Origin: Alphaproteobacteria bacterium | Lineage (GTDB): Bacteria > Pseudomonadota > Alphaproteobacteria > Sphingomonadales > Sphingomonadaceae | DNA length: 44,883 nt | Assembly: GCA_003241875.1 (NCBI GenBank) | Contig: QBLU01000026.1 | Span: forward strand, 1 to 44,883 | Reading direction: 5' to 3' | In this document: in pieces, positions 22,182 to 28,806 of the stretch | Numbering within the stretch: the first letter of the stretch is position 1 | How the letters are laid out: each line of letters begins with the position of its first letter | Translations under genes and position numbers: made by a program | Notes under the pieces: model-generated | Seen by the model: only the letters and a program-made list of their open reading frames with translations | Databases searched by the model: none | Told to the model about the DNA's origin: nothing

Positions 22182-23024
22182 TCACCGACATTGCGTTTCC
22201 GCGGCTTTGGCCGCCGCCCGTTCCTCTGCCGCATAATCTTCCCACCGCGGCCGATTCGCGAAGTTCCAGGCGACGGTCGCCGGGTCGGGTTCGCGCCCGC
22301 CGTCATCGGCTGCCGGTGCCTCGTCCTCAAGGTAGGGCTCCCGGGGCATTGTTTCAGCGCAGGCGTCGCCCGGCCCCTGCCAGCCGGTCGGCAGCGAATT
22401 GGCCGCCACCAGGGCATTATGCGCGATCATCGCCTCATCGAGTTCCGGCCAGTGTTCAAAGGCCTCGGCATGGCCATGGAAGGCCTGCAGCGCGGCGGTC
22501 GCGGCGGCGGCATCGTCGGGCAACAGGGGGAGCGGCGGCGGCGCGGCCGCGCCCTTGCGCCGGCGCGCGGGGGCATCGGCGCCGGCCTGGATGGCGGCCA
22601 GCTTCGCCTCCGCCAGTGCGAGCTTGTGCGCCGCGGCGCGATCGGCCCGCGCCGCCGCCTGCGTCCGTTCGTGCGCGGCGAGGAGGTGGATGAGCAGCCG
22701 GTCCGAACACGGCTTGCGCCGCTCGGCGACCAGAAAGCCGTCGCGCTCGATGGTCTCCCGCTCACCATTGACGGCGCGATCGAGCGCGACCTGTTCGAGC
22801 AGCCCCCAGGCCTGGCCCAGCGCCGCATCCCAGGCGGCGCGAAACGCCCCGGCGTCAGGATGCTGCCGCAGCCGATACGCCGACCGCGCGCTCATCCGCA
22901 CGGCGCGCACCGCCTGGGTGAGCGAGGCGGTCTGCGCCAGCGCCTCCACGAACTTCCATTGCTTTTCGGGAGTCCAGCCATCGGCGCGATTCTGGACGGG
23001 GACGGGGAGGAAAGGTTGAGCCAT
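22182..23024 (-). CDS. Hypothetical protein with N-terminal helix-turn-helix
   Basis: A 280-aa protein. The first 60 residues (DGWTPEKQWKFVEALAQTAS, then LTQAVRAVRMSARSAYRLRQ) look like a homeodomain-like helix-turn-helix of the kind found in terminase small subunits and related DNA-binding proteins. The middle is Ala-rich and helical (about 105-150), and the C-terminus is acidic (YLEDEAPAADDGGREPDP, WNFANRPRWEDYAAEERAAA). I recall similar proteins in other sphingomonads with no assigned function. No phage genes are adjacent. The ribosome site before the ATG at 23024 is weak. It is flanked by two direct copies of a 70-base repeat. Confidence 0.7.
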   Translation of the reverse strand: MAQPFLPVPVQNRADGWTPEKQWKFVEALAQTASLTQAVRAVRMSARSAYRLRQHPDAGAFRAAWDAALGQAWGLLEQVALDRAVNGERETIERDGFLVAERRKPCSDRLLIHLLAAHERTQAAARADRAAAHKLALAEAKLAAIQAGADAPARRRKGAAAPPPLPLLPDDAAAATAALQAFHGHAEAFEHWPELDEAMIAHNALVAANSLPTGWQGPGDACAETMPREPYLEDEAPAADDGGREPDPATVAWNFANRPRWEDYAAEERAAAKAAETQCR

Positions 23025-23096
23025 GCGACTCGGTGTAGCCTATTTGGTTCGTGTAGGACAGCCGAGGCGGCGAGGGCCGTGCCGGCCCCGACTCGC

Positions 23097-23165
23097 CGCA
23101 GGCTCGGCCGGCGGGGCGGGCGGGCAACCCGACCGAACCCGTCCGACGGCGCGGCTTTGCCGCGT
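23097..23165. repeat. Dispersed repeat, copy 2
   Basis: Second copy of the element at 22027-22095, from CGCCGCAGGCTCGGCCGGCG to CGTCCGACGGCGCGGCTTTG, in the same orientation. It ends before the SRAP remnant. Similar text continues in weaker form to about 23220. Confidence 0.65.
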
Positions 23166-23204
23166 TCTTCTTTTGTCTTGGCCTGCATCGTAACAGACTC
23201 GGCG

Positions 23205-23348
23205 GCCAAGCCGCCGGCCGTTCTTTGCCAGATAGTTGAGAGGGATGGAACAGAGCCACCGTGGCTCGTCAACCAAGCGCTCTCCGTCGGTATCCGAAGG
23301 CGTCCGCATCATTGCCGTCGTGTCTGTGATGCGGACGCGGTTGGCGAT
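23205..23348 (-). pseudogene. Fragment of an SRAP (YedK/HMCES-type) gene
   Basis: The translated fragment IANRVRITDTTAMMRTPSDT, then DEPRWLCSIPLNYLAKNG, lines up with the intact SRAP residues SIRITDTTAIIRAAPDNE, QRRWSWPSP and NYRSEGRELG. No start with Cys2, no DGFYE and no His motif are present, so the copy is a remnant of about 48 residues. It lies between the second dispersed repeat and the AT-rich ATPase gene. Confidence 0.55.
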
Positions 23349-23506
23349 CGTACGGTGGGTAACTCTCCCGAAAGCTGTAGGACCGTTGTCTGTCCCAATG
23401 TTCACGAATGAAACCAAGGGCGACGTGACGGGGCAAGCCGCAATATCTAAACTCCGGTTAGCGGAGTGGACCTCGCCCAAGAAAGCCCTTACCGCTCAGG
23501 CAAACC

Positions 23507-25210
23507 TTATACTCTCAAAGCCGTTATTGCGGATATGACAGCCTTCATTCCGTCCGGCTTCCTACCTGCTCTCAACATTTGATCTATAGCAACATTGCGA
23601 AGAGCTTCGTAACCGCCGGATATCGCGTTCACATGTGCATAGCGCTTTAGTATCTCACGTCCTGGTATGTTTATCCGCGATGAACCATCGAGAAACCAGC
23701 CTTCAACTTCACTAGATATACGTGTTCGTTCATGCTCAAGCGAAACGGCTGAAAGCTCGGCGCCAGCCAACGCCTGTATGCGGTCTATAGATCTCTGTGC
23801 AGCTTGAACGACACCATGTGCAGCGCTATCGTCAGCGGGGTTAGATTTGAGATCAATTGCACCTACGAGCCTACTATTCACGTGCTCTCTTAGTCGGTGT
23901 GCAATCAGCTTTGGCGTCGCCCATCGCGCCGCTGCCATTAAGTCTTCTTCTACATCTCTCTCGGTCCTGTTTCGAGAAAACTTCAATGCAACCTCGGACG
24001 ATGCTATAATATCTGTTTCTATTATGTAGTTCTCAATATGGTAACGATCCCATGCGAAGCAGTCCATCCCTGTTGGTCGACCCAACTTGCTTGGCGTATC
24101 ACGGTCTGTGACCGCAAAAAACTTTGTTCTAATATGTCCCGATTGATAAGCGTTCTCCAAAACCTCGTGAAGTGCCCTTACCTTCGTATTGTTACTGCCA
24201 GAAATAAGATTAAATCCACGGAGTTCGTCCTCAAAGAGCTTTCCTACTAAATCGCGATCAAAATCTGCATCCCCGCCGCCCTCGAAGATAATTGCATGAC
24301 CGCCAGGCCGATAGGCAGCAAGGTCCCCAATCAAGTCCGCAAGGGCGAGGTCAAGCCCAGCAGCAGTGAGTGTTTTCAACTGATTCGTGCCGGCCGCTTC
24401 GATACCAGCTGGCGACATATGATAAACACTAAAACCAGGCTTTCCAATAGCATCTCTGATCAAGGCATCGGAATGTGTAATAAGCCACATCTGATTATCA
24501 AGAGCCTCACTAAGATTTCTCCTGTAGAACTCAGGAAGACCTCTGATTAGCCGTGGATTCAAATGAAGCTCTGGCTCGTCCAGCAATATGATGGAGGCTC
24601 GCGGCGCAGAATTGCGCATTCGCAAGTATCCGTACAATATCTCTTTCTCACCCGAGCTTAGCTCATCAAGATCATGAGATTGGCCGCTCCGCATAAATAC
24701 GGGGAATGAAAGCACTCCTTCCGAAGATGCCTGAGGGCCGAGAAACTTCTTATCTGGAAAGAACGTCTCGAAGAGATCCGTCAGCGAGGCTGCTAGTTTG
24801 ACAGGATTGGTCGATACTTCTGGGAACGCATGTTTTGCGATGATGTCCCGTACATACTGTCCGGCCATCTCGCTTTTTATGTTGGCATACTTGTTTGCGG
24901 AATTGTAGAGAGCGTGATGACTTCTGTCAGAAGGACTTGCAGTTAGATTAAGACTGACGCCTTGAATCTGTTCCCTGCCATAGTTTCGATGTGCGCCATG
25001 ATAATCAACGATTCCCAGATCGCCCGGACGATAGTTGGTGAATGCGAGTTTCAGGAGGTAAGAATTGTCCACTTTAATGTTCTTTTGTGTGTCGATCGTG
25101 ACCGAAGCAGGGAGGAAAGCACTTTCTAAGGCGCCTAAAACCTGCGGTGTGTACAATTCTACTTGCCGATCAACCTCTGGCTTACGAGCCCTGTATTCTG
25201 GTAAAAACAA
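23507..25210 (-). CDS. C-terminal part: ABC signature, Walker B and TOPRIM/DUF4435-like domain
   Basis: The 567-aa open part of the interrupted gene if translated separately, from a TTG at 25210 seven codons after the TAA. It holds the rest of the ATPase head (signature near residue 180, Walker B near 207) and the TOPRIM-like C-terminal half with acidic FEGGGDAD and TDRD motifs. It lacks Walker A, so alone it cannot form a normal ATP site. The TTG has AGGGA about 6 bases upstream, so re-initiation is possible. Confidence 0.55.
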   Translation of the reverse strand: MFLPEYRARKPEVDRQVELYTPQVLGALESAFLPASVTIDTQKNIKVDNSYLLKLAFTNYRPGDLGIVDYHGAHRNYGREQIQGVSLNLTASPSDRSHHALYNSANKYANIKSEMAGQYVRDIIAKHAFPEVSTNPVKLAASLTDLFETFFPDKKFLGPQASSEGVLSFPVFMRSGQSHDLDELSSGEKEILYGYLRMRNSAPRASIILLDEPELHLNPRLIRGLPEFYRRNLSEALDNQMWLITHSDALIRDAIGKPGFSVYHMSPAGIEAAGTNQLKTLTAAGLDLALADLIGDLAAYRPGGHAIIFEGGGDADFDRDLVGKLFEDELRGFNLISGSNNTKVRALHEVLENAYQSGHIRTKFFAVTDRDTPSKLGRPTGMDCFAWDRYHIENYIIETDIIASSEVALKFSRNRTERDVEEDLMAAARWATPKLIAHRLREHVNSRLVGAIDLKSNPADDSAAHGVVQAAQRSIDRIQALAGAELSAVSLEHERTRISSEVEGWFLDGSSRINIPGREILKRYAHVNAISGGYEALRNVAIDQMLRAGRKPDGMKAVISAITALRV

Positions 25211-25228
25211 ACAGTCCCTGTAATTAAT

Positions 25229-25606
25229 TTACGGCATTTCGTCCCGGAAAAGAGTTTTAGCAATGGTGTCCTCTAGCAATTCAACAAGATTGTCGCTTAT
25301 ATAACTCTTCTCGTGAGCTCTTAAAACAAAGTCGCACTTTACCGAAACGTCTTCCGCCTTGTCATAGAAGAGGTTTTCCAAATTGCCCTTTTTTCCGCTG
25401 AGAGTTATCTGCAGTTCGCCGAAGAAGCTGCTAACCTCATTAGCGTTATAGCCAGCAATCGAAGACTTTAGCAGTTTTATTGCATCAAAGATGCAACTTT
25501 TGCCCGATCCATTTTGTCCGGCTATCACAACAGTGTCGGTGAGTTCGATTGCAGTCAAAGAATCTATGCCACGAAAGTTGTCGATTGAGATATTGAGTAT
25601 CTTCAT
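25229..25606 (-). CDS. N-terminal part: Walker A half of the interrupted ATPase
   Basis: A 125-aa frame starting MKILNISIDNFRGIDSLTAI, the typical head of SMC/RecF-like AAA ATPases. It contains VVIAGQNGSGKSCIFDAIKLL and ends at DEMP before the TAA. It has no Walker B or signature, so it can only work with the downstream part. Confidence 0.55.
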   Translation of the reverse strand: MKILNISIDNFRGIDSLTAIELTDTVVIAGQNGSGKSCIFDAIKLLKSSIAGYNANEVSSFFGELQITLSGKKGNLENLFYDKAEDVSVKCDFVLRAHEKSYISDNLVELLEDTIAKTLFRDEMP

Positions 25607-25795
25607 TGCTATCTCAGTTCCAAAGCCGCGACCAAGATGATGGCTGGCATCGTTAAGACGCTACCGCATTTTCTTGACCCTGTGTTTTTTTTGTATCGTT
25701 GCTGTTCTCGTTGGCACGGTTTCGCAAACGTGACGAACAGAGGCGTGATGAACCGGCAGCGCCTTACGGCGGTGGCTTTTGGCTCTCCACGCGGT

Positions 25796-25850
25796 ACACC
25801 TTCACCCGCCGCGCTGGCGCGCGAGTCGCCTCTCCCGCAGGCGGGAGAGG
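25796..25850. repeat. 55-bp dispersed repeat, copy 1
   Basis: This segment (ACACCTTCACCCGCCGCGCT onward to GCGGGAGAGG) matches 44138-44192 at about 48 of 55 positions by eye and in the same orientation. It ends in the palindrome CCTCTCCCGC-AG-GCGGGAGAGG. It lies downstream of uvrA. Confidence 0.7.
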
Positions 25851-25861
25851 AAGGAAGGGCT

Positions 25862-25879
25862 CCGGGGCCAAGGCCCCGG
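25862..25879 (-). terminator. Possible terminator hairpin of uvrA
   Basis: CCGGGGCC-AA-GGCCCCGG is a perfect 8-bp inverted repeat 14 bases past the uvrA stop. On the uvrA strand it is followed by AGCCCTTCCTTCC, pyrimidine-rich but without a clear U-run, so intrinsic termination is only possible. Confidence 0.4.
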
Positions 25880-25893
25880 CCGCCTGAGGCGCT

Positions 25894-28806
<2,913 letters not shown>

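What the first reader, a model, noticed from the sequence alone, without database searches (positions are those of the whole stretch)
23507..25606. PARIS-like ATPase-TOPRIM fusion split by one in-frame TAA in an AT-rich island
Seen: one reading frame with Walker A before and signature, Walker B and TOPRIM-like acidic motifs after a single TAA at 25229-25231; no frameshift; composition unlike its neighbours. Established: AriA (ATPase) and AriB (DUF4435, TOPRIM-like) of PARIS occur as separate or fused proteins, and OLD-family nucleases have a related plan. Inference: an acquired defence gene that is newly inactivated, or a naturally split or stop-regulated form, since 18 bases later an in-frame TTG with AGGGA could restart translation. 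Either case would be unusual.
Basis: partly seen in the sequence, partly recalled or inferred. Interest (0 to 1): 0.75.

Follow-up and report, generated by a model that had tools for sequence, protein, structure and literature searches.

The report
Recently broken fused PARIS defence gene
A bacterium picked up a one-gene version of a known anti-phage suicide system (PARIS) beside a DNA-repair gene, and a single stop mutation has since most likely switched it off; broken copies of this gene turn out to be common, so the find is tidy rather than startling.

Summary
One minus-strand frame (25606-23507) encodes an ABC ATPase plus a TOPRIM/DUF4435-type domain, interrupted only by TAA at 25231-25229, on an AT-rich island. 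Read across the stop, it matches PADLOC's fused-PARIS model AriAB from end to end (566.9 bits, positions 1-691 of 694). Of 31 relatives whose frame covers this codon, none has a stop there. The catalytic motifs survive, and 109 of 119 positions invariant in 23 intact relatives are kept. In simulated neutral decay, more than about 10% protein divergence nearly always leaves two or more stops. So the lesion is recent, or both halves are still made. Nine of 28 decidable relatives from one genome scan are broken elsewhere by frameshift, stop, insertion, deletion or truncation. Recurrent loss explains this better than a programmed split. The gene sits between uvrA and a small hypothetical gene. One congener has this site empty; others carry a retron, a reverse transcriptase or an HNH nuclease there, so it is a small variable-cargo site. 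Verdict: a new, probably recently inactivated member of a known kind, of low-to-moderate interest.

The parts
23507..25606 (-). ariAB gene (fused AriA ABC ATPase + AriB-like TOPRIM/DUF4435), broken by one in-frame stop
   Evidence: single frame, 566.9 bits to PDLC02981 over model 1-691/694
25232..25606 (-). N-terminal part, 125 codons, ATPase N-lobe with Walker A
   Evidence: AriAB model 1-116, 99.7 bits
25229..25231 (-). premature TAA (codon 126), in a predicted loop (residues 121-128) of the ATPase
   Evidence: no stop here in 31 relatives whose frame covers this codon
23507..25210 (-). ORF from the in-frame TTG after the stop (567 aa), possible but unproven restart
   Evidence: AGGGA at 25215-25219, 4 bases before TTG
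25496..25519 (-). Walker A, GQNGSGKS (residues 30-37)
24647..24661 (-). ABC signature LSSGE (residues 316-320)
24575..24592 (-). Walker B, IILLDE (residues 339-344)
24257..24283 (-). TOPRIM-type motif E442...D450 (EGGGDADFD)
24098..24106 (-). acidic motif D501-x-D503 (DRD)
24029..24040 (-). HIEN motif (residues 523-526), IEN shared with a DUF4435/AriB protein
23155..25796 (.). inserted AT-rich island (approximate ends); ariAB is its only recognised gene
   Evidence: comparison with the empty site of congener G402 (L064); four short ORFs on or at the edge of the island have no Pfam match
25894..28806 (-). uvrA, one border of the variable site
   Evidence: named UvrA from its sequence; recalled
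22182..23024 (-). conserved hypothetical gene (P0003), other border of the variable site
   Evidence: no Pfam match

Best explanation
The locus is a horizontally acquired, single-gene (fused) PARIS anti-phage gene, ariAB, inserted as a roughly 2.6 kb cargo between uvrA and a small conserved hypothetical gene. When intact, such a protein would by analogy work as follows: the N-terminal ABC ATPase senses a phage protein and then unleashes the C-terminal TOPRIM nuclease, which cuts host tRNAs and stops growth (known for E. coli PARIS; inferred here). In this genome a lone nonsense codon at position 126 stops translation after the Walker A lobe. No complete ATPase or sensor-effector protein is then made, and the system is most likely off. 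The change is recent relative to the gene's age, because the rest of the frame and the catalytic motifs are intact. Shown: family, fusion, the stop, its absence in relatives, the island, the empty site. Inferred: loss of function, recency, mechanism.
For: AriAB model over the full length with the stop read through (566.9 bits) and for the two halves apart (99.7 and 459.2 bits at complementary model positions). 23 intact relatives have letters, not gaps, in the stop column; 20 of 23 need no gap within five columns of it. Seven broken relatives and one cut by a contig end also have no stop there. The window keeps 109 of 119 columns invariant in 23 intact rows, catalytic motifs included. Simulated neutral decay leaves two or more stops in 53 of 60 runs at 90% identity and 60 of 60 at 80%. 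Relative to clade-mates, the half after the stop is no more diverged than the half before it (N/C identity ratio 0.99; nine others 1.03-1.13). 9 of 28 decidable relatives are broken in other ways. Empty site in one congener and other cargo at the same site in four. Published: deleting ariA or ariB is non-toxic and abolishes defence (PMC9122126, passages).
Against: The window row has a long end branch (1.47 against a median of 0.34) and loses 13 of 159 columns invariant among 18 close intact rows, the most of any row in that leave-one-out count (others 0 to 12), so it diverged fast before or after the stop. A single stop cannot tell a recent loss from a maintained split with both halves translated. 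A restart codon with a weak Shine-Dalgarno-like AGGGA lies 18 bases on. No strain-level data or reads. DUF4435 itself is not detected by Pfam in the window protein. The high break rate rests on one scan: in the whole-genome samples, the two other ariAB copies found were both intact (G130; G589).
Confidence: 0.83

Rival explanations
1. Naturally split or stop-regulated PARIS: the 125-residue Walker A fragment and a 567-residue fragment restarted at TTG (25210) are both made and assemble, or rare read-through gives a little full-length protein, so the stop tunes a dangerous effector.
For: Both halves keep their motifs and no further stop has appeared. The stop falls in a predicted loop between helices (residues 121-128, low confidence). 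In-frame TTG preceded by AGGGA.
Against: 0 of 31 relatives whose frame covers the codon share the stop. The break separates Walker A from signature and Walker B, and no such split ABC ATPase is known to me (recalled). SD-like spacing is short (4 bases). The segment is variable in an intact relative too (L096).
Confidence: 0.06
2. Sequencing or assembly error: the gene is intact in the organism.
For: Draft assembly of 111 contigs; one base call would suffice; no reads are held.
Against: Genome 99.99% complete and 0.32% contaminated, which does not bear on single bases. Breaks recur in this family, including one in a complete chromosome (L106) and an insertion with transposase-like ORFs (L110), so a real lesion is the likelier prior.
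Confidence: 0.07
3. An OLD-family or Gabija-type (GajA) ATPase-TOPRIM nuclease rather than PARIS.
For: Best fold matches in the PDB are the retron Eco8 effector and GajA, with OLD and PtuA also among the 50 rows shown; AriA and AriB are not among those 50.
Against: AriAB model 566.9 bits against GajA 39.0 and Old 44.7 bits, both best over about the first 48 residues. DUF4435 is found in 18 of 24 members and OLD-like TOPRIM in 1 of 24 at E 0.031. Profile match to a DUF4435/AriB protein at the EG..D, NK, D.D and IEN motifs.
Confidence: 0.04

Closest known systems
PARIS, fused form (PADLOC AriAB, PDLC02981)
   Same: Full-length match of the read-through protein, 1-695 to model 1-691 of 694, 566.9 bits; 24 of 24 members of the alignment match. 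ATPase then TOPRIM/DUF4435 on one polypeptide; the fusion is described in PMC9122126 and PMC12409363 (passages).
   Different: One in-frame stop; a lysine in the GNK motif of the nuclease domain, present in 23 of 23 intact rows, is asparagine here (residue 473).
Two-gene PARIS (AriA 8ux9/8v45 + AriB)
   Same: Same two domains. Weak profile match of the family to AriA in the PDB (E 0.005). Profile match of the C-terminal part to a stand-alone DUF4435 protein from Lichenicola that hits PADLOC AriB (E 1.5e-4, probability 51.5%; 43.9 bits).
   Different: Single gene; no sequence match to AriB in the PDB.
OLD family / Gabija GajA / retron Eco8 effector
   Same: ABC ATPase + TOPRIM plan; top Foldseek hits with E down to 7.6e-13.
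   Different: Low TM-scores (0.23-0.33 by query length in the 50 rows shown), 11-16% identity; best profile stretches limited to the Walker A region.

Membership tests
PARIS (fused AriAB) | AriA-type ABC ATPase with Walker A, LSSGE signature and Walker B | tested here: met
   AAA_15 60.6 bits and AAA_21 59.7 bits, above cut-offs; AriA PDLC02979 74.9 bits over model 1-373; motifs
PARIS (fused AriAB) | AriB-type DUF4435/TOPRIM effector domain | tested here: inconclusive
   Window protein: no DUF4435 hit. Family: 18 of 24 members hit DUF4435 at E <= 1; of five intact members scanned singly, two are above the cut-off and three below. hhalign to a DUF4435 protein E 1.5e-4 with shared acidic motifs. 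No AriB hit in the PDB
PARIS (fused AriAB) | full-length match to the curated fused model | tested here: met
   PDLC02981 1-691/694, 566.9 bits; halves apart 99.7 and 459.2 bits
PARIS (fused AriAB) | one uninterrupted reading frame | tested here: not met
   TAA at codon 126; intact in 23 relatives
PARIS (fused AriAB) | phage-triggered growth arrest by tRNA cleavage | not testable with these tools
   known for E. coli PARIS (PMC9122126, PMC12409363, passages)
OLD / Gabija GajA | full-length match to OLD or GajA models and OLD-like TOPRIM | tested here: not met
   Old 44.7 and GajA 39.0 bits, best stretch about 48 residues; OLD-like TOPRIM in 1 of 24 members at E 0.031
Naturally split gene | homologues split at the same codon | tested here: not met
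   0 of 31 relatives whose frame covers the codon (23 intact, 7 broken, 1 contig-cut); L109 is frameshifted near residue 121

The most novel reading that the evidence does not exclude
The stop is a kept feature: the Walker A fragment and the restarted signature/Walker B/TOPRIM fragment are both produced and reassemble, giving a split PARIS whose assembly, not only its sensing, gates the tRNase. Evidence not excluding it: no decay after the stop and a loop position for the break.
Probability: 0.05. Interest if true: 0.75.

Novelty: new member of a known kind. Interest (0 to 1): 0.32.

Why it matters
It documents a fused PARIS gene apparently caught soon after inactivation. More usefully, it shows that this gene is often broken: 9 of 28 decidable copies in one scan, by five kinds of lesion. 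That fits a costly growth-arrest gene that is gained and lost repeatedly, and it warns against counting detected AriAB genes as working defence. The uvrA-side site, which swaps PARIS, retron, reverse transcriptase and HNH cargo among congeners, is a small hotspot worth mining for defence genes. Two term searches of the held library for such a site (10 of 33 papers listed, no paper) showed no title or abstract start describing it; I opened none of those papers.

Tried and rejected
Single-sequence scans of genome contigs and viral contigs with the C-terminal half found nothing; an alignment of three intact relatives found the family. The phage collection had no match. Local divergence around the stop first looked like a junction freed by a split, but an intact relative (L096) is as divergent there, so I dropped it. 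A pair of compensating frameshifts was considered by eye only, from the bases; I ran no test of it. PDB search with the nuclease part alone gave only chance-level hits. Rfam: no match in 22900-26100. Promoter- and terminator-like sites: 5 against 2.2 and 4 against 3.2 expected in shuffles, none of the promoter-like sites upstream of the ATG; not used. Control for break rate: GajA gave only 3 matches in 397 genomes, none with stops; retron reverse transcriptases gave 18 matches in 397 genomes, none with stops. Fisher test of 9/28 against 0/18 gives p = 0.007; isolates only (5/16, sorted by record title, L114 left out as 'uncultured') against 0/18, p = 0.016. That control is a shorter gene from one bacterial order found by another search, which flags stops but not frameshifts, so the contrast is only suggestive; and in such whole-genome samples the two other ariAB copies were intact. 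Rows left out before the count: L098 and L115 (cut by contig ends), L116-L139 (not counted as family members: weak or partial matches). Papers: PMC12409363, PMC9122126 and PMC9252829 were read as search passages only; other papers were seen only in listings. Searches were further listings.

Full report
What is there. On the minus strand a frame starts with ATG at 25606, runs 125 codons to TAA at 25231-25229, and continues in the same frame for 573 codons to the stop at 23509-23507. Shuffles and the other five frames show that this openness is not chance. The gene lies on an AT-rich island: kilobase GC is 0.48-0.56 over 23001-26000 and 0.60-0.73 elsewhere; third-position GC is 0.50 and 0.45 in the two parts against 0.90 in uvrA.

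What family. The halves hit PADLOC's fused-PARIS model AriAB at complementary positions (1-116 and 138-691 of 694). Read across the stop, the match is 566.9 bits over 1-691; the next models are far lower (AriA 74.9, PtuA 74.4, Old 44.7, GajA 39.0). All 24 members of an alignment of the window and 23 intact relatives match AriAB. Pfam DUF4435, the AriB domain, is hit in 18 of 24 members at E <= 1 but not in the window; of five intact members scanned singly, two exceed its cut-off. A profile of the C-terminal part aligns with a stand-alone DUF4435 protein from a Lichenicola plasmid at the EG..D, NK, D.D and IEN motifs (E 1.5e-4, probability 51.5%). Against the PDB by sequence, the family profile finds AriA only weakly (E 0.005) and the nuclease part finds no AriB. 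The AlphaFold model (22 sequences, mean pLDDT 79.8, pTM 0.58) matches ATPase-TOPRIM and related ABC proteins: retron Eco8 effector, GajA, PtuA, SMC, OLD; AriA/AriB are not among the 50 rows shown. TM-scores are low, and I use this only for the two-domain plan. The stop lies in a predicted loop, residues 121-128, of low confidence (block 121-130 mean pLDDT 62).

Relatives and the stop. An alignment-based scan of genome contigs returned 54 loci, of which I count L086-L115 as the family (30 loci). Of these, 19 are intact, 9 broken and 2 cut by contig ends. The 23 intact copies used are those 19 plus G130, two plasmid copies (Kovacikia, Lichenicola) and one viral contig. They are intact by choice, so the test is wider: of 31 relatives whose frame covers the window's stop codon (23 intact, 7 broken, and L098, cut by a contig end) none has a stop there. 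All 23 intact rows have a letter in that column; three (L093, L096, L097) have small gaps within five columns. A further whole-genome hit, G589, proved identical to L105 over 5082 bases and is not counted again; it puts the window's family with Erythrobacter donghaensis. The nine broken copies: frameshifts in L100 Shinella granuli (near residue 60, at a run of seven T), L106 Mesorhizobium sp. AR07 (near 484, complete chromosome), L107 Mesorhizobium sp. WSM3859 (near 649) and L109, a Solirubrobacterales MAG (near 121); an in-frame stop plus loss of the rest in L101, a Methylococcaceae MAG (codon 346; match ends near 509), and L111, a Bacillota MAG (near residue 61; match ends at 173); a 1.3 kb insertion in L110 Tianweitania populi whose ORFs look like an IS3-type transposase (recalled); an internal in-frame deletion in L112, a Betaproteobacteria MAG; truncation near residue 77 in L113 Sphingobium sp. 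15-1. Five of the nine are isolates, four MAGs. On the tree the label 'broken' (8 rows, the window included; L112 and L113 left out as too short) needs 7 changes, shuffled mean 7.2, so the losses are scattered.

Age of the lesion. The window row has a long end branch (1.47, median 0.34; its place is therefore unsure). It loses 13 of 159 columns invariant in 18 close intact rows, more than any of those rows in a leave-one-out count (0 to 12). Yet it carries one stop and keeps 109 of 119 columns invariant in all 23 intact rows; of the ten changes six are conservative and none touches a catalytic motif residue. One deserves notice: lysine 473 of the nuclease GNK motif, present in 23 of 23 intact rows, is asparagine here. 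In E. coli AriB the double change of two lysines, K60 and K64, abolishes defence (PMC12409363, passages); equivalence is my inference. Simulated neutral decay leaves two or more stops in 53 of 60 runs by 90% identity. The sequence was therefore under selection as protein for nearly all of its divergence. The part after the stop is not more diverged than the part before it, relative to clade-mates. This means a recent stop or continued translation of both parts; recurrent independent loss in the family and the absence of this stop elsewhere favour the first.

Surroundings. The gene sits between uvrA (28806-25894) and a hypothetical gene P0003 (23024-22182). Of 24 genomes searched in the genus (own included), I fetched the uvrA downstream side of 21 of the 23 relatives; four of these run out within 2.3 kb. 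In 6 of the remaining 17 a P0003 homologue follows within about 6 kb; in the other 11 none was seen in the stretch fetched. G402 has uvrA and P0003 adjacent, giving the empty site and island ends near 23155 and 25796; G399 has about 1.4 kb there without a convincing gene. Four carry other cargo: G401 a type II-A retron reverse transcriptase and its partner, G252 another reverse transcriptase, G398 an HNH nuclease plus a protein with a weak TIR-effector hit, G317 two proteins without a match. In G130, of another genus, an intact but only 43% identical ariAB lies between uvrA and a P0003-like gene as well. The same site has thus received ariAB at least twice, by inference from that distance. Four short ORFs on or at the edge of the window's island have no Pfam match, so no mobility gene is recognised there. 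Both edges are dispersed repeats: 33 and 38 matches in the genome, own copies included, with 40 candidates scored in each search, so lower bounds.

How it would work. PARIS in E. coli halts growth when its ATPase senses a phage anti-restriction protein and the TOPRIM subunit cuts tRNA; deleting either gene abolishes defence and is not toxic (PMC9122126 and PMC12409363, passages). A stop that ends the protein after the Walker A lobe should therefore be silent for the cell and remove defence. The fusion is described in both papers. PADLOC's authors note that many defence genes are annotated as pseudogenes (PMC9252829, passages). So kind and fate are both known; the measured share of broken fused copies and the uvrA site are what is added here.

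Limits. No reads, no strain set and no expression data. The break-rate count comes from one motif-seeded scan that requires an intact N-terminal stretch and includes MAGs. Its control is rough (0 of 18 retron reverse transcriptases with stops), and the two other ariAB copies met in whole-genome samples were intact.

Noticed in passing
window 22182-28806; L064, L065, L066, L067, L070, L072, L085: The uvrA-P0003 interval is a variable-cargo site: empty or nearly so in G402 and G399, other cargo (retron II-A, reverse transcriptase, HNH nuclease, unknowns) in G401, G252, G398, G317, and ariAB in the window and in another genus (G130).
   Followed up: partly
window 23090-23174 and 25793-25854: Both edges of the island are copies of dispersed repeats with at least 33 and 38 matches in the genome; they may take part in cargo exchange.
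   Followed up: partly
L033 1947-4109 and L177 113-1968 (NZ_CP053715.1): One 28.8 kb Lichenicola cladoniae plasmid carries both a fused ariAB and, about 2.6 kb away, a two-gene AriA/AriB-like pair, with an annotated MazEF-type pair between them.
   Followed up: partly
L105 4748-5083 and 6001-8082 (Erythrobacter donghaensis): An intact ariAB here also lies within 1 kb of a P0003-like gene, without uvrA in the fetched stretch; the P0003-like gene may itself mark cargo sites.
   Followed up: no
L079 (G167), about 1213-1407 after reverse complement: Near a 580-aa protein without a family match downstream of uvrA, a second partial copy of the uvrA 3' end is present, as if cargo had duplicated its target.
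   Followed up: no
L112 6001-6717: An in-frame deletion leaves a 240-codon open mini-AriAB lacking Walker B and the TOPRIM motifs.
   Followed up: no
window 24188-24190 (residue 473): A lysine kept in 23 of 23 intact relatives is asparagine in the window copy, perhaps a second weakening change.
   Followed up: partly
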